In this document: positions 23,876 to 63,170 of the stretch, in pieces | How the letters are laid out: the number at the start of each line of letters is the position of its first letter | How positions within the stretch are numbered: position 1 is the stretch's first letter | From: Flavobacteriaceae bacterium | GTDB lineage: Bacteria; Bacteroidota; Bacteroidia; Flavobacteriales; Flavobacteriaceae | DNA length: 64,000 bases | Reading direction: 5' to 3' | Assembly: GCA_024743095.1 (NCBI GenBank) | Contig: JANSXF010000012.1 | Span: 1 to 64,000 of the forward strand | The notes under the pieces: generated by a model | The model's input: the letters and a program-made list of their open reading frames with translations, nothing else | Databases searched by the model: none | What the model was told of the DNA's origin: nothing | Program-made: the position numbers and the translations under genes

Positions 23876-23973
23876 TGTTTTTTGCCAATTTTACAGCGTG
23901 ACAGGCTGGGGACCAGTTTTACAAGATGGTCGGCTTTGGTATGGTTTTTCAGGCCATAATCCTACGTTAAAAG

Positions 23974-24040
23974 CGTAGTGCTCTACCAACTGAGCTATCT
24001 CCTGGGAGGGAGAGCGGGAGTCGAACCCGCGACATCCACG
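23974..24040 (-). ncRNA. Permuted tRNA-like module 2 (67 nt)
   Basis: Stem CGTGG (24040-24036) pairs with CTACG (23978-23974), including one G-T pair. T arm GCGGG/CCCGC with loop TTCGACT, short acceptor TCTCC/GGAGA closed by six bases, and D arm GCTC/GAGC with loop AGTTGGTA. The downstream CTTTTAACGTAG offers CTACG an alternative partner that would give a Lys(TTT)-like anticodon arm. Confidence 0.7.
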
Positions 24041-24338: not shown

Positions 24339-24361
24339 TTGTGAATTCATTTATTCGATTG

Positions 24362-24434
24362 TAGGAATAGCAAGACTTGATCTCGCGTCTCTAGGTTCGT
24401 AGCCTAGCGTTCTATCCATTTGAACTATACTTCT
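24362..24434 (-). tRNA. tRNA-Arg (ACG anticodon), array member 11
   Basis: Anticodon arm CTAGG-CTACGAA-CCTAG gives ACG. The acceptor AGAAGTA/TATTCCT has one mismatch and a G-T pair, and the T loop is ATCAAGT rather than TTCRANN, so it is somewhat degenerate. After A34 editing to inosine it would read CGA, CGC and CGT. Confidence 0.8.
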
Positions 24435-24438
24435 ATGG

Positions 24439-24511
24439 TGGAACAGACAGGACTCGAACCTGTATCCACGGATCTTCAATCCGTTGCATTGACCAGCTTT
24501 GCTACTGTTCC
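24439..24511 (-). tRNA. tRNA-Phe (GAA anticodon), array member 10
   Basis: Acceptor GGAACAG/CTGTTCC, anticodon arm ACGGA-TTGAAGA-TCCGT, T arm ACAGG/CCTGT with loop TTCGAGT, discriminator A. Only four bases separate it from the Arg gene. Confidence 0.92.
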
Positions 24512-24514
24512 TTG

Positions 24515-24586
24515 AAGACCTGAAAGGAATCGAACCTTTTCAGCAAGAGTCAAATTCTTGCATGCTAGCTGTTACATCACAGGTCT
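24515..24586 (-). tRNA. tRNA-Gln (TTG anticodon), array member 9
   Basis: Acceptor AGACCTG/CAGGTCT, anticodon arm CAAGA-ATTTGAC-TCTTG, T arm AAAGG/CCTTT. The D arm is short and irregular. Confidence 0.88.
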
Positions 24587-24588
24587 CG

Positions 24589-24662
24589 TACTCCACCCAA
24601 GATTCGAACTTGGACTTTAAGGATTTTAAGTCCTTTGCCTCTACCGTTTGGGCTAGTGGAGC
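24589..24662 (-). tRNA. tRNA-Leu (TAA anticodon), short variable loop, array member 8
   Basis: Acceptor GCTCCAC/GTGGAGT, anticodon arm AAGGA-CTTAAAA-TCCTT, T arm CCAAG/CTTGG, discriminator A. The variable region is only five bases (AAAGT), whereas bacterial tRNA-Leu normally has a long variable arm. Total length is 74 bases. Confidence 0.85.
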
Positions 24663-24666
24663 CTTG

Positions 24667-24740
24667 TACAGGGAGAGAGATTCGAACTCTCAATCTCCTG
24701 ATCCTAAATCAGGCGCGTTTACCATTTTCGCCATCCCTGC
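24667..24740 (-). tRNA. tRNA-Leu (TAG anticodon), short variable loop, array member 7
   Basis: Acceptor GCAGGGA/TCCCTGT, Leu-like D arm GCG-AAAATGGTAAA-CGC, anticodon arm CCTGA-TTTAGGA-TCAGG, T arm GAGAG/CTCTC, discriminator A. Variable region is five bases (AGATT); the long arm expected of tRNA-Leu is absent here too. Confidence 0.85.
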
Positions 24741-24746
24741 ATATTG

Positions 24747-24819
24747 TTGAGGCATTGGGGTTTGAACCCAAGACTCCCGTGTTAAAAGCACGGTACTCTA
24801 CCAACTGAGTTATACCTCA
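24747..24819 (-). tRNA. tRNA-Lys (TTT anticodon), array member 6
   Basis: Acceptor TGAGGTA/TGCCTCA, D arm ACTC/GAGT, anticodon arm CCGTG-CTTTTAA-CACGG, T arm TTGGG/CCCAA, discriminator A. A complete cloverleaf. Confidence 0.93.
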
Positions 24820-24824
24820 TTTTG

Positions 24825-24896
24825 CACTCCATAAGGGGATCGAACACTTGTCTTCCGGTAGAAAGCCGGATGCACTGGCCACTATGCTAATGGAGC
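24825..24896 (-). tRNA. tRNA-Glu (TTC anticodon), array member 5
   Basis: Acceptor GCTCCAT/ATGGAGT, anticodon arm TCCGG-CTTTCTA-CCGGA, T arm AAGTG/CCCTT with one mismatch, discriminator G. Confidence 0.9.
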
Positions 24897-24910
24897 AATT
24901 GTTTTTAGTG

Positions 24911-24983
24911 AGACAAGGATGAGATTCGAACTCATAAATGATGGATTTGCAATCCATAGCCTTGACCATTCAGCCACCTTGTC
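24911..24983 (-). tRNA. tRNA-Cys (GCA anticodon), array member 4
   Basis: Acceptor GACAAGG/CCTTGTC, anticodon arm ATGGA-TTGCAAA-TCCAT, T arm ATGAG/CTCAT, discriminator T as usual for Cys. Confidence 0.92.
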
Positions 24984-24989
24984 ATTTTG

Positions 24990-25077
24990 CGGAGGGCAAA
25001 GGAATTGAACCTTCACTACCGTGTCGATAGACTCGTTTAGCAGGCGAGCGCAACGAACCAGTATTTGCCTACCCTCC
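24990..25077 (-). tRNA. tRNA-Ser (GCT anticodon), array member 3
   Basis: An 88-base class II tRNA: acceptor GGAGGGT/GCCCTCC, anticodon loop CTGCTAA, a long variable arm, T loop TTCAATT, discriminator G. One anticodon-stem pair (C/A) is mismatched. Confidence 0.9.
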
Positions 25078-25080
25078 TTG

Positions 25081-25153
25081 CAGTACCGATGGGAATCGAA
25101 CCCATTGCTTCCCAAGAGACAGTTGGGCACTCTAGCCATTGAGTTACGGTACT
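25081..25153 (-). tRNA. tRNA-Asp (GTC anticodon), array member 2
   Basis: Acceptor AGTACCG/CGGTACT, anticodon arm CCCAA-CTGTCTC-TTGGG, T arm ATGGG/CCCAT, discriminator G. The 77 bases between it and tRNA-Tyr hold two small hairpins but no recognisable tRNA. Confidence 0.92.
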
Positions 25154-25230
25154 TTGATACATCTGTCAGCACTTGATTTCCAACCCCAAGTTTTAGGGGC
25201 ATGGATAACCCATGCGCTTCAGACCTATGG

Positions 25231-25313
25231 TGGGAGTGGTAGGAATCGAACCTACTCAGTCAAAGACAACGGATTTACAGTCCGCCCCGACTCTCCAACT
25301 TCGGCGGACTCCC
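25231..25313 (-). tRNA. tRNA-Tyr (GTA anticodon), array member 1
   Basis: An 83-base class II tRNA with anticodon loop CTGTAAA, variable arm GTC/GAC, T arm GTAGG/CCTAC and discriminator A. The acceptor pairs six of seven positions (C7/C66 mismatch). It begins 14 bases after the TPR stop codon, so both share a transcript. Confidence 0.9.
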
Positions 25314-25317
25314 ATAC

Positions 25318-25341
25318 AACCGCTCCTTATTTGGAGCGGTT
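25318..25341. terminator. Hairpin at the junction of the TPR gene and tRNA array
   Basis: AACCGCTCC and GGAGCGGTT pair perfectly around six bases and span the TPR stop codon. T residues follow only on the plus strand, where it could stop antisense transcription; on the minus strand it is more likely a processing signal separating the mRNA from tRNA-Tyr. Confidence 0.5.
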
Positions 25342-25875
25342 TTTAGATGTATCCTCCTTTCGTTTTTTCTTGTTCTTGTTTTTCTTCTTCTTCTTCCCAA
25401 GCTTTCCTTTTACACGACCTATCTCTTCTTCAATCCGTCTTATGAATTCATTGTTCAGTCCGTGCTTTTTTGCTAGCTTGTATGCATTGATTGCTTCCTT
25501 GTACTCGCTTTGTACCTCGTTGAGCAAACCTTGATAGAAATATAAAGCTGCTTTGTCGGCTGCCTTCAGGGCTATGGCGAAATCCAATAGTTTCTGGGCT
25601 TCTTCATAATCCTCGTTCATGATTAAGGTCCTGACATAATCAGGGTATATATAAGGCACCTGCATATTGCTGGCCATGGCCTGGGCGAAGCATTCCTTGG
25701 CTGCTTCATATTCACCCAACTGCTCAGCGTAAACCTTTCCCATCAGACAAAGAGCTTTTGCATTTTTGTCATCATAGGATAGGGCATAGTTCAATGCTTC
25801 GATTGCTTCCTCAAGGTCATACGGATATGCATCCAGTGCCTTGAACAGGTACATGTTAAAATTTGTTCTTTCCAT
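25327..25875 (-). CDS. TPR-repeat protein with lysine-rich C-terminal tail, leading the tRNA array
   Basis: A 182-residue protein with about four TPR-like helical repeats (for example ALCLMGKVYAEQLGEYEAAKECFAQAM and ALYFYQGLLNEVQSEYKEAINAYKLAK). The last 25 residues are nearly all Lys, Arg, Asn and Asp (KLGKKKKKNKNKKK), suiting RNA binding. An AGGAG Shine-Dalgarno-like sequence lies ten bases before the ATG, unusual in this phylum. It is preceded by a leader peptide and attenuator and followed after 14 bases by tRNA-Tyr, so it is made together with the tRNAs and may chaperone or present them. Function is inferred from context only. Confidence 0.8.
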   Translation of the reverse strand: MERTNFNMYLFKALDAYPYDLEEAIEALNYALSYDDKNAKALCLMGKVYAEQLGEYEAAKECFAQAMASNMQVPYIYPDYVRTLIMNEDYEEAQKLLDFAIALKAADKAALYFYQGLLNEVQSEYKEAINAYKLAKKHGLNNEFIRRIEEEIGRVKGKLGKKKKKNKNKKKRKEDTSKNRSK

Positions 25876-25970
25876 GATATAAATCTCCTATTGCATTTTG
25901 GGTATGGACATGCCAATCCCCTTATGCGGTTTGCATTGGCCTCGGAAATGTTTATGCGGTAATTGGGCAT

Positions 25971-26117
25971 AAAAAAATCCGAAACAGTCTATTTTTTGAA
26001 TGCTTCGGATTCTTTATTGGGGACTGTGCCCCTTATTGAAAGAACCGAAGCTTTCTCAATGATTGCTCAGTGAGCAATCGGCTTTCAAAACAACTTTGAT
26101 ATAAAAGCATAGCTTCG
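25971..26117 (-). promoter_or_regulatory. Three-way transcription attenuator upstream of TPR and tRNA array
   Basis: On the minus strand four segments can pair in alternatives. Segment 1 CGAAGCT (26117-26111) pairs with segment 2 AGCTTCG (26052-26046). Segment 2 GCTTCGG (26051-26045) pairs with segment 3 CCGAAGC (26008-26002), extended by TTC/GAA. Segment 3 AATCCGAA (26011-26004) pairs with segment 4 TTCGGATT (25983-25976), followed by TTTTT, an intrinsic terminator. Segment 2 is within codons 20-22 of the leader ORF. This is the geometry of amino-acid operon attenuators: stalling early frees segment 2 to block the terminator; full translation hides it. Confidence 0.8.
26033..26110 (-). CDS. 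25-residue leader peptide of the tRNA-array attenuator
   Basis: An ATG-to-TAA frame of 25 codons between the second promoter and the terminator. It starts M-L-L-Y-Q-S-C-F-E-S-R-L-L. The residues used are Leu, Tyr, Gln, Ser, Cys, Phe, Glu, Arg, Lys and a single Thr. Apart from Thr, these are residues whose tRNAs are in the downstream array; of the 11 array tRNAs only Asp is not tested. Codons 2-13 can all be read by array anticodons if the Leu(TAG) tRNA reads CTN codons and Arg(ACG) carries inosine. The ORF overlaps attenuator segment 2, so the peptide itself probably has no function beyond being translated. Confidence 0.75.
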   Translation of the reverse strand: MLLYQSCFESRLLTEQSLRKLRFFQ

Positions 26118-26158
26118 TTTTTACTGTTATGATTCACTTGTGTCGTTCTTGATTCGAC

Positions 26159-26170
26159 GGTGCAAATATG
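26159..26170 (-). promoter_or_regulatory. Promoter P2 of the tRNA-array leader
   Basis: CATATTTGCACC on the minus strand resembles the Bacteroidetes -7 box (TAnnTTTG), with CTTG 20 bases upstream as a -33 element. The same 12 bases occur at 26565-26576 before the other leader ORF. Confidence 0.6.
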
Positions 26171-26377
26171 AAACCAATATTTTAATTACACAAGAAAAAT
26201 ATGATTTTAATTAATTGATAATCAAATAGTTATAACTAATTTAGATAATAGTATCCCTGCCCGCTTTTCAGCAGATTTTTGAACATTTTACAATCGCCTG
26301 TCTCTCAATTGATTCCTGTTTCAACTATTTCTTTTTATGTCGTTTTAATTTTCACTCATTTCTTAAAAATTTTCCAT

Positions 26378-26406
26378 AAAAAAAGCGCCCAATGTTGTTG
26401 GACGCT
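26378..26406 (-). terminator. Intrinsic terminator after the 40-codon leader ORF
   Basis: AGCGTCCAA (26406-26398) pairs with TTGGGCGCT (26392-26384) around CAACA and is followed by TTTTTTT on the minus strand. Upstream segments GGACG (26473-26469) and TTGTG (26456-26452), inside the leader ORF, can pair with CGTCC (26404-26400) and CACAA (26410-26406) of this region and would then prevent the terminator. Confidence 0.8.
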
Positions 26407-26437
26407 TGTGTATTGTATCATGATTTGCTTTACATCA

Positions 26438-26560
26438 CTATAAAATAAACTCACAACTAGACACATCACGTCCCTTACGCAAGGATAATTCCAATATCCA
26501 GCGATAGTCACACTGACTGAACAGTGCTCCCGGTTTGATATGTACTCTAGTGTTTTTCAT
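26438..26560 (-). CDS. 40-residue leader peptide containing all 20 amino acids
   Basis: An ATG-to-TAG frame of 40 codons starting almost at the expected transcription start of P1. Residues 1-18 read MKNTRVHIKPGALFSQCD; residues 19-24 add Tyr, Trp and Glu, so all 20 amino acids occur by codon 24 with only Lys, Arg, Ile and Leu repeated. The remaining 16 codons overlap the segments that could form an antiterminator against the terminator at 26378-26406. A ribosome stalled at any amino acid in codons 1-24 would leave those segments free. This points to a general sensor of charged or intact tRNA rather than a functional protein. Confidence 0.7.
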   Translation of the reverse strand: MKNTRVHIKPGALFSQCDYRWILELSLRKGRDVSSCEFIL

Positions 26561-26564
26561 ATGT

Positions 26565-26576
26565 GGTGCAAATATG
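26565..26576 (-). promoter_or_regulatory. Promoter P1 of the 40-codon leader
   Basis: CATATTTGCACC on the minus strand, identical to P2 at 26159-26170. It ends only four bases before the ATG at 26560, so the transcript would be leaderless or nearly so. No clear -33 TTTG was found at the usual spacing. Confidence 0.55.
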
Positions 26577-26606
26577 GGTAAAAAACTATAAAGTTTGGTA
26601 ACACCT

Positions 26607-28334
26607 TCAAAACATTGTTACAATATGATATAGCAAAATTGTAAATGCTAGTATTAAAATTATTGAAAGAAAGAGGATGACTATATTACTAGTGTTTTTT
26701 TGGTTTTGATTTATTTTCTTTCTTTTCTCCCAATCTATTAATGAAGGATCAAAATCCAATTCGTCAAATAGCGCATCTTTATATATATCATTTTTGATTA
26801 GCTCGGCAATTGCTTTTTGAATTGAGTTGTATGCTTTTTCATGCATAAAAAAACTTCTCTTTTTTAAATACCAGTAGTCATAAATACAAGACCTAATTGC
26901 CTTAAAGGTATTTTTTTCATCTTTGATTTCACCCAATGCATCTATTTTCATCAACAGTTCTTTAAATCTGAACAGATTATTTGGTGCATTACCATTCCTA
27001 TAAAATCTAAATGCCTTTTCATATTCCTTCCTTTCGTAAAAAATATCCCCTAATAGAACTAAGAATGTGTTTAGATTTTTTCTTGTTTTGTTGTCGCCAT
27101 ATCCATTTTTCTCAAAAAGGAAGCTAAAATCGGAATCGACATGTTCTTCTCTTCTAAGGTCTAAAGAGCTTACGGTGTCAATTTCTTGAAGGGAGGAAAA
27201 GTCTATTATTTCATTGTTCTTAAGACTTAGGCTTTTTATACTGTTTTTACGATCAAGTGTAATGGTTTTTATTGGATTGTTGTCCAAATTGACAAACATC
27301 GCATTTACTGGGAGGTTGTTTATGTCTGTTATTTTATTGTGAGAAAAATTAACCCTTATAAGACTGTTAAGTTCGTTAAAAGGTGATATACTTACGACCT
27401 GATTTTCTTCCATATAGAGTTCTTTTAAAAATGTCATGTTTTCCAAACACATGATTTCAAAGATGTTGTTATGGGACAAGTTCAAATGCTCTAGTTTGAC
27501 CAAGTATCTAAGGTGTTCAATTTTTTCTATTCGGTTATTGGAAAGATTTAGAAAATGTATCCCAGTAATGTGTGATATTGGTTCAATATCTATGATATTG
27601 TTATAGGATAGATTTAAACCAGTAAGCTGTTTCAAATTTTTCAAAGAATCTATAGAGTCTATTTGTGAGTCGGTAAAATTTAGTGAGGATAGACTCGTCA
27701 GGTTCTCTAGAAATGAAATATCAGGCTTTGTTAAATTACTTAAACTTAAAGTTTCCAATGAGGTTAGTTCGGCCACATATCCCAAGTTTTTGATTGGATT
27801 TGCTACCAGTGAAAGGTTTTTAATATGTCGACAATGCCGAATAGCCGAAATATCTTCAATTTTGTTAGCATTGAGATTTAAGTGATGAAGGAGAGTTAGT
27901 TCTGAAATTGCGGTTATATCGTTTATGTTCCCTGTCCATAAACAAAGTTTCCCCAGTTTTTTACTTTTTCTTAAAAAGGAAAGTTCTTGAACTGTTGAAC
28001 TTCCGTCAATTGATAAGGTCGTTAATTCTTCAAGCCCTATGAGCTTTTCCAAGTTAAAGATTTCGTTTGCTTCAATAAGTATTGATTTTAAATGGGATAG
28101 GGCGGATATGGGCTCAATATCTAATGATTGTGGGATGCAAATTTCTATATGTTCAAGGTTTGGCAACTGATATAAAAAACTGATATCGTTTTGAAAGTCT
28201 GGAAGCTCAGGATATTCAGAATCAAAAAGAAAGAACCCAACAATATTGTCATTTTCGTCCATATTAAATGAATAATGGTGGTGTTCCCCTAAGCCATATT
28301 TTTCTAGGCTTTCTACTATTTCCTTTTTGTTCAT
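26607..28334 (-). CDS. Leucine-rich-repeat protein with C-terminal membrane anchor
   Basis: A 575-residue protein. Residues about 45-400 form some 15 leucine-rich repeats of about 22 residues (for example LTGLNLSYNNIIDIEPISHI and LEHLNLSHNNIFEIMCLEN). Residues about 405-530 are helical and TPR-like (LGDIFYERKEYEKAFRFYRNG). A single membrane helix closes the protein (NIVILFLSIILILAFTILLYHIV, about residues 548-570). There is no signal peptide, so the repeats face the cytosol. It starts 16 bases after rtcB stops, so the two genes form an operon. The repeats probably bind a protein or RNA partner of the repair ligase at the membrane; this is inference. Confidence 0.85.
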   Translation of the reverse strand: MNKKEIVESLEKYGLGEHHHYSFNMDENDNIVGFFLFDSEYPELPDFQNDISFLYQLPNLEHIEICIPQSLDIEPISALSHLKSILIEANEIFNLEKLIGLEELTTLSIDGSSTVQELSFLRKSKKLGKLCLWTGNINDITAISELTLLHHLNLNANKIEDISAIRHCRHIKNLSLVANPIKNLGYVAELTSLETLSLSNLTKPDISFLENLTSLSSLNFTDSQIDSIDSLKNLKQLTGLNLSYNNIIDIEPISHITGIHFLNLSNNRIEKIEHLRYLVKLEHLNLSHNNIFEIMCLENMTFLKELYMEENQVVSISPFNELNSLIRVNFSHNKITDINNLPVNAMFVNLDNNPIKTITLDRKNSIKSLSLKNNEIIDFSSLQEIDTVSSLDLRREEHVDSDFSFLFEKNGYGDNKTRKNLNTFLVLLGDIFYERKEYEKAFRFYRNGNAPNNLFRFKELLMKIDALGEIKDEKNTFKAIRSCIYDYWYLKKRSFFMHEKAYNSIQKAIAELIKNDIYKDALFDELDFDPSLIDWEKRKKINQNQKNTSNIVILFLSIILILAFTILLYHIVTMF

Positions 28335-28350
28335 AGCATTTTTATTAACC

Positions 28351-29772
<1,422 letters not shown>

Positions 29773-29884: not shown

Positions 29885-30904
29885 ATGGCCCTTAACAAGA
29901 ATGCACTCATAAGATATAAAACCATTGATAAATGTTTGCAGAACAGCTATCGTCAATGGACCTTGGAAGATTTGATAGAGGCATGTTCCGATGCACTCTA
30001 CGAGTATGAGGGAAGGTCTGTCAATGTCAGTAAACGTACCGTTCAGTTGGATATTCAAATGATGCGTAGCGATAAGTTGGGCTACAATGCACCCATAGTG
30101 GTCTATGACAAGAAATTTTACCGTTATGAGGACGAGGATTATTCCATTACGGATATTCCCTTGAATGAAAACGATATGAACGTACTCACGGAAACTGTTG
30201 AAATGCTGAAACAGTTCAAAGATTTCTCGCTCTTTTCGGAACTTGGTGGAATTATACAGCGATTGGAGGATAAGGTGTATACAGAGAAAACCCATAGGTC
30301 TTCCATCATCCATTTGGACAAGAATGAAAACCTGAAAGGCCTACATTGGTTAGATGAACTATATCAAGCCATTCAAAAAAAGATTGTGCTTAAAGTGGAG
30401 TACAAATCGTTTAAAGCCACCGAGTCCAATGTCATTACTTTTCACCCCTTTTTGTTGAAAGAGTTCAACAATCGTTGGTTTTTGATCGGGATTGGAAATA
30501 AGAATAGGGGAGTGGTAAACCTTGCTCTTGACCGGATTATTGCCTTGGATTACGACTTCGCATTAACCTATATAGAGCATGACTTTGATGCGGATGACTT
30601 CTATAAGGATGTTGTGGGGGTTACGGTAAGCAGAGGACGTCCTTCGGTTGTAAAGTTATGGATAGACAGCCATAATGCACCATATGTTGTCACTAAACCC
30701 ATACATCATTCGCAAAGATTGGTCAAGGAACACGAAGATGGTAGTATTGAGGTTACTTTTTTGGTCAAACCCAATTTTGAATTGGAACGTATGTTGTTGG
30801 GTTTTGGAGAATCCGTTGAGGTTTTAAAGCCCGAAAATTTAAGGAACCGGATTGCCGTCAAGTTGGAGAATGCGGCAAACAAATATAAAAAAGAAAGTAG
30901 CTGA
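29885..30904 (+). CDS. WYL-domain transcriptional regulator
   Basis: A 339-residue protein. Residues about 5-85 form a winged helix-turn-helix (YKTIDKCLQNSYRQWTLEDLIEACSDAL, then SKRTVQLDIQMMRSD). Residues about 140-250 are the WYL domain, with LKVEYKSF, FHPFLLKEFNNRWFLIGI and NLALDRI, and the rest is the C-terminal WCX region. WYL domains bind nucleic acids or small molecules and often govern DNA- or RNA-damage genes. Its position divergent from rtcB, with a palindrome between, makes it the likely controller of the RNA-repair locus. Confidence 0.9.
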   Translation: MALNKNALIRYKTIDKCLQNSYRQWTLEDLIEACSDALYEYEGRSVNVSKRTVQLDIQMMRSDKLGYNAPIVVYDKKFYRYEDEDYSITDIPLNENDMNVLTETVEMLKQFKDFSLFSELGGIIQRLEDKVYTEKTHRSSIIHLDKNENLKGLHWLDELYQAIQKKIVLKVEYKSFKATESNVITFHPFLLKEFNNRWFLIGIGNKNRGVVNLALDRIIALDYDFALTYIEHDFDADDFYKDVVGVTVSRGRPSVVKLWIDSHNAPYVVTKPIHHSQRLVKEHEDGSIEVTFLVKPNFELERMLLGFGESVEVLKPENLRNRIAVKLENAANKYKKESS

Positions 30905-62731: not shown

Positions 62732-62849
62732 TTATTCAATGATTACAATAGGTCGACCATATAAAGAAGATGTGCCCAGGGACAAAAGGAAAATAATATT
62801 GCATACATTTACACCTAAATAAGTTCTTTACTTAATTTCTTTATCAAAA

Positions 62850-63040
62850 CGATAGGGGTTCTCGACAGGTCATTGTCGGGATTAAAAGGGAATCGTGTGT
62901 AAATCACGAGCTGACGCGCAACTGTAAGTCCGATTCCACTTTTGGGATAGCATGTTTTTGCCAATTATGCCATTGTCCACCATATTTAGTGGATGAGAAG
63001 GCGGCAAAGATCGGACAAGCCAGGATACCTGCCTATATTG
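62850..63040 (+). promoter_or_regulatory. Cobalamin riboswitch upstream of metE
   Basis: The typical core is seen: AAAAGGGAATC with GTGTAAATCACGAGC, CTGACGCGCAACTGTAA and, near the 3' end, AAGCCAGGATACCTGCC (B12 box, 63017-63033). In the presence of cobalamin such riboswitches turn off the B12-independent methionine synthase, which follows at 63211. Confidence 0.93.
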
Positions 63041-63170
63041 TTCCTACTTTGTAGGATTTTGACGGTGCCTTCGCGTAAAGGGCAGGTCGAACGTTTGAAA
63101 TTTACCCAGAACCTTGGGCCAATTCCATCTGCGTTCTTCTTGTTCAAGGCATTGCGAAGTTGAGCTAAGG

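What the first reader, a model, noticed from the sequence alone, without database searches (positions are those of the whole stretch)
26378..26576. 40-codon leader ORF that samples all 20 amino acids in 24 codons, before a terminator
Seen: the ORF contains every amino acid by codon 24 with only four repeats, an extreme composition, and is followed by a strong intrinsic terminator. The last 16 codons hold segments (GGACG, TTGTG) able to pair with the terminator's 5' side. Known: in attenuators, stalled ribosomes expose antiterminator segments. Inference: this is a universal tRNA-shortage sensor, where lack of any tRNA prevents termination.
Basis: partly seen in the sequence, partly recalled or inferred. 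Interest (0 to 1): 0.95.

Follow-up and report, generated by a model that had tools for sequence, protein, structure and literature searches.

The report
Leader peptide sensing every amino acid
Many flavobacteria carry, upstream of RNA-repair-associated and spare tRNA genes, a tiny gene whose roughly 40-residue peptide keeps nearly all 20 amino acids packed in front of a predicted on/off RNA signal although its sequence changes freely between species, so it likely works as a universal alarm that would switch those genes on when any amino acid or its tRNA runs short.

Summary
Related loci gave 60 distinct leaders upstream of a matching terminator. Their peptides diverge below 40% identity, yet hold 18.97 kinds of amino acid on average against 16.0 expected; 26 of 60 hold all 20 against 0.1 expected. 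The variety is packed into codons 1-26, just ahead of an RNA segment complementary to the terminator's 5' arm, found at codons 26-32 in 57 of 59 leaders, in all three reading frames. Residues that are a peptide's only copy of their amino acid change 3.4 times less often than redundant ones (odds ratio 4.6-6.6 after stratifying). In the window the leader precedes a second leader, a TPR gene, 11 tRNAs and slipin, beside rtcB. Best reading: a ribosome-mediated attenuator that tests whether every amino acid can be read. Untested: expression and response to starvation. Against it: 34 of 60 lack 1-4 kinds; no conserved anti-antiterminator; fold models need kinetics.

The parts
26569..26576 (-). -7 promoter box CATATTTG (P1); predicted start of transcription at 26564, 5' UTR of 4 nt
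   Evidence: Sequence; TAnnTTTG lies at -12 to -5 in a mapped Flavobacterium (PMC9723704, passages). TTTG begins 11-13 nt before the ATG in 52 of 59 leaders.
26438..26560 (-). ORF1, leader peptide of 40 codons with all 20 amino acids in codons 1-24
   Evidence: 60 distinct related leaders
26468..26473 (-). Segment 2 (GGACGT, codons 30-31), complementary to the terminator's 5' arm
   Evidence: best complementary site at codons 26-32 in 57 of 59 leaders, in all three frames, with covarying variants
26378..26407 (-). Intrinsic terminator T1 (AAGCGTCCAA-CAACA-TTGGGCGCTT, T run); its 5' arm (26398-26407) is segment 3
   Evidence: only match of the pattern GCGTCCAAN{3,14}TTGGNCGCTTTTT in the held genome
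26260..26275 (-). Conserved hairpin TCTGCT-GAAA-AGCGGG followed by CAGG, between T1 and P2, function unknown
   Evidence: Stem of at least 5 bp in 40 of 47 extracted blocks, 15 distinct inner stems
26163..26170 (-). -7 promoter box CATATTTG (P2)
   Evidence: Sequence; a similar box in the relatives printed, except G082
26033..26110 (-). ORF2, second leader peptide MLLYQSCFESRLLTEQSLRKLRFFQ
25972..26015 (-). Second intrinsic terminator T2 (ATCCGAAGC ... GTTTCGGAT, T run follows); AGCTTCGG near the end of ORF2 can pair with CCGAAGC (by eye)
25327..25875 (-). TPR-repeat protein gene of the island
   Evidence: Pfam TPR_19 over cut-off; relative in 66 of 397 family genomes, own genome counted
24361..25313 (-). 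Bank of 11 tRNA genes (Tyr, Asp, Ser-GCT, Cys, Glu, Lys, Leu-TAG, Leu-TAA, Gln, Phe, Arg-ACG)
   Evidence: 8 of the 11 anticodons were also found elsewhere in the held genome
22417..23517 (-). Slipin-like SPFH/Band_7 protein gene
   Evidence: Pfam Band_7; the name slipin is recalled
28351..29727 (-). rtcB, RNA ligase gene
   Evidence: Pfam RtcB
29885..30904 (+). WYL-domain regulator gene, divergent from rtcB
   Evidence: Pfam WYL and WCX

Best explanation
ORF1 and terminator T1 likely form a ribosome-mediated transcription attenuator whose leader peptide is apparently selected to hold as many of the 20 amino acids as possible ahead of its predicted antiterminator segment, so that a shortage of any one aminoacyl-tRNA would let transcription continue toward a TPR gene, a bank of spare tRNA genes and slipin. 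Shown by sequence: promoter box, ORF, segment 2 and terminator in at least 23 genera, the variety packed into codons 1-26, the slower change of sole-copy residues, and segment 2/segment 3 complementarity with covariation. Predicted: transcription starts 4 nt before the ATG. Inferred: a ribosome that has read codons 2-25 in time masks segment 2 and T1 forms (off); a ribosome stalled at any earlier codon, or absent, leaves segment 2 free to pair with segment 3, so T1 cannot form (on). Read-through would then reach the conserved hairpin, the second promoter and the second leader, in series.
For: Kinds of amino acid 18.97 observed, 16.02 expected, maximum of 2000 simulations 16.55; 26 of 60 with all 20 against 0.115 expected; representatives below 40% identity 18.58 against 15.92; residues shuffled within alignment columns never reach the observed mean in 3000 trials. 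First 24 codons 17.54 kinds against 15.26 for permuted peptides, 0 of 1000, also for representatives below 40% identity; base-shuffled ORFs 16.85 against 19.0. Segment 2 at codons 26-32 in 57 of 59 leaders, frames 0, 1 and 2, with GGGCG/CGCCC and CAGGCG/CGCCTG variants. Sole-copy residues differ in 42 of 507 cells, redundant ones in 159 of 566; odds ratio 6.6 within amino-acid kinds, 4.6 within positions. Folding of 10 leaders: 2:3 pairing stays possible with the ribosome at early codons and collapses between codons 25 and 29, given an assumed 30-nt footprint. Of 59 leaders 46 have tRNAs or slipin downstream. The six leaders lying downstream of TPR sit 480-679 nt before the first tRNA of a run. 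Six hand-picked peptides of a different leader class before tRNA runs hold 17-20 kinds, 0 of 3000 simulations.
Against: Only 26 of 60 leaders hold all 20; W is absent from 12 of 30 representatives. No conserved pairing that would hide segment 2: without a ribosome 8 of the 10 leaders folded keep 2:3 pairing at 0.65 or more, at equilibrium the terminator wins in most states printed (exceptions in G476, G376, L144), and with the ribosome at the stop codon segment 2 is partly free again, so the switch must rest on kinetics. A promoter lies between T1 and the regulated genes, so the size of its effect is unknown. 17 of 59 leaders have no tRNA within 5 kb downstream. 53 of 148 loci have no T1 near TPR, 12 have another gene's terminator there. 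Eight of the nine loci found outside the family were examined: no bank, and no leader-terminator unit within 1.2 kb upstream of TPR. Beyond codon 26 sole-copy and redundant residues change alike, but only 18 sole-copy cells were available. Related sequences are not independent. No expression data.
Confidence: 0.82

Rival explanations
1. The leader is a general translation-stress sensor for ribosome-targeting antibiotics, like toiL or the whiB7 uORF: stalling anywhere opens the switch, and amino-acid shortage is only one trigger.
For: In the fold model absence of a ribosome also permits antitermination. toiL is proposed to respond to stalling anywhere in the uORF (PMC12121999, passages). The Anabaena tRNA operon is induced by antibiotics that target translation (PMC10272220, abstract).
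Against: Antibiotic sensing alone does not need nearly every amino acid before segment 2, nor slower change of sole-copy residues.
Confidence: 0.1
2. ORF1 encodes a functional small protein, or the P1-T1 transcript is a non-coding RNA, with its own terminator and no attenuation.
For: P1-T1 is a complete transcription unit; the single RNA folds better than shuffles (z -3.06); close relatives share much of the peptide.
Against: Peptides fall below 40% identity while variety is kept; segment 2 is read in different frames; a non-coding RNA does not explain amino-acid packing and slower change of sole-copy residues; no NCBIfam match and no Pfam match over cut-off.
Confidence: 0.06
3. The leaders are tuned to the particular tRNAs in their own bank rather than to all amino acids.
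For: In the window 23 of 24 ORF2 residues after Met belong to amino acids of the bank (0.96); own-bank fit beats swapped banks in all but 2 of 2000 swaps.
Against: The effect is small over 28 loci (0.570 against 0.536) and the loci include close relatives; ORF1 is rich in loci with and without tRNAs (18.38 and 17.47 kinds in 26 codons).
Confidence: 0.02
4. Chance: one lucky ORF among many.
For: A whole genome offers many ORFs to search through.
Confidence: 0.005

Closest known systems
Ribosome-mediated attenuators of amino-acid operons (trp, his; Elf and Ehrenberg 2005, PMC1183508, abstract only)
   Same: Short leader ORF, terminator, a race of ribosome against polymerase
   Different: Known leaders carry regulatory codons for the amino acid of their own pathway; here repeats are avoided and nearly all 20 kinds are sampled before segment 2; the genes downstream are tRNAs and RNA-repair-associated; no clear anti-antiterminator
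Leader-peptide attenuation reported in Flavobacterium psychrophilum (PMC9723704, passages)
   Same: Flavobacteriaceae, same TAnnTTTG promoters
   Different: Reported upstream of amino-acid biosynthesis operons; no all-amino-acid leader in the passages read
toiL uORF of E. coli and whiB7 uORF (PMC12121999, passages)
   Same: One uORF answers many kinds of translation stress because stalling at many places opens the switch
   Different: toiL acts on translation and Rho termination; no selection for a complete amino-acid set in the passages read ('all 20': 0 occurrences)
trn tRNA operon of Anabaena under the repressor TrcR (PMC10272220, abstract and passages)
   Same: Spare tRNA array, silent in normal growth, induced by translational stress; rtcB and a slipin-family gene rise in the same repressor mutant
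   Different: Protein repressor (ribbon-helix-helix); 'leader' and 'attenuat' occur 0 times in the text
RtcB2-PrfH operon (PMC9223846, search listing and abstract start only)
   Same: rtcB2-like genes precede the TPR gene in several loci
   Different: In several of those loci a different, short leader of about 20 codons lies upstream

Membership tests
Ribosome-mediated transcription attenuator | Short ORF between promoter and terminator | tested here: met
   59 leaders; promoter box to ATG 11-13 nt in 52 of 59; stop 28-49 nt before the terminator (G220 counted); two loci with broken ORFs. The rule itself asked for an ORF, a TTTG and a terminator.
Ribosome-mediated transcription attenuator | Intrinsic terminator before the regulated genes | tested here: met
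Ribosome-mediated transcription attenuator | Alternative antiterminator pairing | tested here: met
   position, covariation; fold model of 10 leaders
Ribosome-mediated transcription attenuator | Control codons concentrated on one or a few amino acids | tested here: not met
   Opposite found: nearly all 20 kinds present, few repeats; hence a variant, not a classical member
Ribosome-mediated transcription attenuator | Anti-antiterminator (1:2) hairpin | tested here: inconclusive
   Of 10 leaders modelled only G198 (0.13) and G249 (0.50) show reduced 2:3 pairing without a ribosome
Ribosome-mediated transcription attenuator | Read-through rises when control codons are starved | not testable with these tools
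   Needs reporters
Phe_leader (Rfam RF01859) | Reaches the family's gathering score | tested here: not met
   25.0 bits against 55
T-box riboswitch | Match to an Rfam T-box model | tested here: not met
   No such family among the nine matches at E up to 10 in 25900-26700
6S RNA | Rfam RF00013 match at this place | tested here: not met
   The only match in the held genome is on another contig, 31.5 bits, below cut-off

The most novel reading that the evidence does not exclude
A tRNA and RNA-repair bank run by a cascade of all-amino-acid attenuators: leader 1 (T1), the bank leader (T3) and more weakly leader 2 each make the ribosome read nearly the whole amino-acid alphabet before the antiterminator closes, so that damage to or starvation of any tRNA releases spare tRNAs and repair proteins. 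This would be a closed loop in which the decoding machinery tests itself, and the first regulatory peptide known to be selected for completeness rather than for sequence.
Probability: 0.65. Interest if true: 0.96.

Novelty: new variant of a known kind. Interest (0 to 1): 0.93.

Why it matters
Attenuation is known as a sensor of one or a few amino acids. Here evolution appears to have made one that reads nearly all of them, where it makes most sense, ahead of a reserve of tRNAs. It would give a compact natural probe for overall decoding capacity, suggests how bacteria could sense tRNA cleavage without a dedicated receptor, and shows a peptide conserved in composition but not in sequence, which similarity searches miss: a protein search with ORF1 found only 2 relatives.

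Tried and rejected
Rejected: chance; 6S RNA; known Rfam families; a conserved small-protein family. Close relatives first seemed to refute completeness (G013 18, G003 17, G085 16 kinds); the wide sample reversed this. The idea that ORF2 is tuned to its own tRNA bank looked striking in the window and proved weak over 28 loci. Leaders 1 and 2 do not complement each other: union 19.39 kinds against 19.57 when leader 2 is swapped among 46 loci, all 2000 swaps at or above the observed value. With tRNAs in the locus leader 1 is only marginally richer (18.38 against 17.47 kinds in 26 codons, p 0.051). A toy race model of mine lowers termination for 19 of 20 amino acids, but it has free parameters and a simplified masking rule; I do not rest on it. 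Two alignments hold a row cut from the wrong place (G087, L162); one search was not used, and only for its other rows.

Rows dropped or missed: of the 65 other genomes found, loci of 60 were fetched (G187, G189, G195, G429, G479 were not); one search kept the best 80 of 237 relatives. ORFs above 50 aa were left out: the 59-aa ORFs at the T1 place of 12 loci are the C-terminus of a longer upstream gene in the three looked at; I call it TerB-like from recall, and Pfam gave no match to the 59-aa piece; G470 and L165 of these passed the looser rule. G220 (spurious, 5.7 kb from TPR) was left out, so 59 leaders. G026/L137 are cut by a contig end. G135/L158, which holds all 20, fails the promoter-distance rule and was not counted. 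L197 and L211 have early stops. Some genomes occur twice (G and L names); counts are of distinct peptides. The third leader class was picked by hand from the listing in six loci (G082, G455, L156, L160, L178, G412, the last read by eye); none was picked in G369, G143 and L170. Of nine TPR loci outside the family eight were fetched.

Full report
What is there. On the minus strand the window reads: rtcB (29727-28351), a leucine-rich-repeat gene (28334-26607), promoter P1, ORF1, terminator T1, about 215 nt, promoter P2, ORF2, terminator T2, a TPR gene (25875-25327), 11 tRNA genes, slipin; a WYL-domain regulator diverges from rtcB. ORF1 contains all 20 amino acids by codon 24. Exact chance with the composition of the window's long ORFs is 1.04e-6, and no other of 421 ATG ORFs in the window exceeds 17 kinds in 24 codons. 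G021, of the window's genus, has a contig of the same length (395602) as the record of Flagellimonas oceanensis, so the genus is taken as Flagellimonas/Allomuricauda.

First doubts. Close relatives have the same unit, but G013 lacks P and Q, G003 lacks C, N and W, G085 lacks Q, T, W and Y. Taken alone this looked like a refutation. The two relatives of the protein search hold all 20 by my count.

Wide sample. I searched with the TPR protein, which is independent of the finding: matches in 8 of 71 genomes of the genus and 66 of 397 of the family, in 53 genera, own genome counted, and 237 relatives in the species collection, of which the best 80 are kept as named loci. In 148 loci (window, 7 of the genus, 60 of the family, 80 named; some genomes twice) a fixed rule (T1-like terminator, ATG with TTTG 6-24 nt upstream, 30-50 codons, stop 15-60 nt before the terminator) found 77 leaders, 60 distinct, in at least 23 genera by the labels; 71 loci gave none. 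Of those 71, 53 have no T1 near TPR, 12 have another gene ending there, 6 have T1 without an ORF by the rule: 2 cut by a contig end, 2 with an ORF 41 nt from the promoter box, 2 with early stops.

Completeness. The 60 peptides hold 20 (26 peptides), 19 (15), 18 (13), 17 (3) or 16 (3) kinds; mean 18.97 in 38.4 residues against 16.02 expected. All 20 kinds are expected in 0.115 peptides. Thirty representatives below 60% identity average 18.7 (8 complete), nineteen below 40% average 18.58 (4 complete). Shuffling residues within alignment columns never reached the observed mean in 3000 trials, for all 60 and for the 30 representatives. Random fragments of 39 residues from the window's long ORFs average 15.9 kinds and none had 20. 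A complete peptide with 60% of its residues replaced at random would keep 17.0 kinds and be complete in 1.8% of cases. Cysteine is in 26 of 30 representatives against 6 expected, histidine in 29 against 15, tryptophan in 18 against 10.

Place. The first 24 residues hold 17.54 kinds, permuted peptides 15.26, random ones 13.42; 0 of 1000 permutations reach the observed value, also for representatives below 40% identity. The last new amino acid has appeared by codon 27 in 30 of 59 leaders. The site most complementary to the terminator's 5' arm (searched from codon 11 on) starts at codons 26-32 in 57 of 59 leaders (not in G003 and L186), read in all three frames (GRDV, RTLC, HRDV, GRFV), and covaries where the terminator differs: GGGCG/CGCCC in G156, G472, L185 and L193, CAGGCG/CGCCTG in G485. 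Single leaders are only weakly significant against codon-shuffled ORFs (27 of 60 at p<0.05); I take the constant position as the stronger sign, though I computed no null for it. In a fold model of 10 leaders with a 30-nt ribosome footprint blocked, 2:3 pairing stays possible with the ribosome at early codons and collapses between codons 25 and 29; that point depends on the footprint assumed.

Selection. In 43 nearest-neighbour pairs at 50-98% identity, residues of codons 2-26 that are the only copy of their amino acid differ in 42 of 507 cells, redundant ones in 159 of 566; 0 of 2000 permutations reach this. The odds ratio is 6.6 within amino-acid kinds and 4.6 within positions; for pairs at 35-60% identity 3.3 and 2.4. 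In codons 27 and later the rates are 16.7% (n=18) and 19.8% (n=516). Pairs share ancestry, so the z-scores are not probabilities.

Mechanism. Inferred: a ribosome that reads codons 2-25 in time covers segment 2 and lets T1 form; one held at any codon before it leaves segment 2 free and T1 is prevented. The P1 box, placed by the TAnnTTTG positions mapped in F. psychrophilum (-12 to -5; PMC9723704, passages), predicts a 4-nt 5' UTR. Against a simple equilibrium switch: the terminator is the most stable state in most conditions printed, and 2:3 pairing is also possible with no ribosome (0.65 or more in 8 of 10) or with one at the stop codon. The device would have to be kinetic, a race as in Elf and Ehrenberg (PMC1183508, abstract), with loss of translation reading as 'on'.

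What it controls. Of 59 leaders 53 lie within 1 kb upstream of TPR, 42 have at least one tRNA and 39 have slipin downstream. The six others lie 480-679 nt before the first tRNA of a run. There a further leader class with another terminator follows in most cases; six such peptides, picked by hand, hold 17-20 kinds, one of them all 20 in 40 residues. Leader 2 (80 distinct) is mildly enriched: 15.1 kinds against 13.9, and front-loaded. In the window's genome 8 of the 11 bank anticodons have another gene elsewhere, so the bank is largely spare; Tyr-GTA, Lys-TTT and Leu-TAA were not found elsewhere, but the assembly is 94.6% complete and 150 of 229 first-look candidates were scored.

Breadth. In a sample of 345 genomes of the class 15 have a TPR relative, 9 of them outside the family. 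The eight I fetched have no tRNA genes in the stretch and no leader-terminator unit within 1.2 kb upstream of TPR; seven have an rtcB-like gene. So the device is so far seen only in Flavobacteriaceae.

Known systems. Nine paper searches listed, by title and start of abstract, nothing on a leader peptide selected for all amino acids; lists were capped (15 of 47, 15 of 100, 12 of 25), and subscription journals are mostly missing from that library. Nearest in function are toiL and whiB7 uORFs (PMC12121999, passages) and the Anabaena tRNA operon with rtcB and a slipin gene under TrcR (PMC10272220, abstract and passages). Attenuation itself is a known kind; the all-amino-acid leader is the new variant.

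Noticed in passing
window 26260-26275 (minus); also in the blocks of G085, G455, G476 and others: A hairpin TCYG..loop..CGGA (or CGGG) followed by CAGG lies about 100 nt after T1 in most of 40 of 47 blocks that have it, with 15 distinct inner stems, in a conserved block before P2 that also holds an ATTGAT..TCAAT-like palindrome (by eye). RNA element or operator, function unknown.
   Followed up: partly
L045, L087, L089, L098, L105, L113, L119, about 2.6-4.8 kb upstream of TPR: A short leader of 16-21 codons (often H..DA.KLF) with a T1-like terminator in loci that carry an rtcB2-like gene; 11-15 kinds of amino acid, enrichment not tested.
   Followed up: no
L045 (20 tRNAs), L102 (15), L086 (15), L104 (14), L170 (18), L208 (15): tRNA banks beside TPR vary strongly in content between genera.
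   Followed up: partly
window 26607-28334 (minus): A 575-aa leucine-rich-repeat gene lies between rtcB and the leader in this genome; tblastn found no relative in the seven other loci compared, two of them on short contigs.
   Followed up: no
window 23941-23997 (minus): A partial tRNA-like match (33.4 bits, Rfam) just beyond the bank, not called by ARAGORN.
   Followed up: no
window 62839-63050 (+): Cobalamin riboswitch, 92.3 bits.
   Followed up: no
G000 contig C8 2042-2214 (minus): Possible 6S RNA, 31.5 bits, below the family cut-off.
   Followed up: no
L197 (T1 506 nt before the TPR match), L211 (T1 521 nt before it): Two leaders with early in-frame stops in loci where ARAGORN finds no tRNA genes, possibly decaying units.
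   Followed up: no
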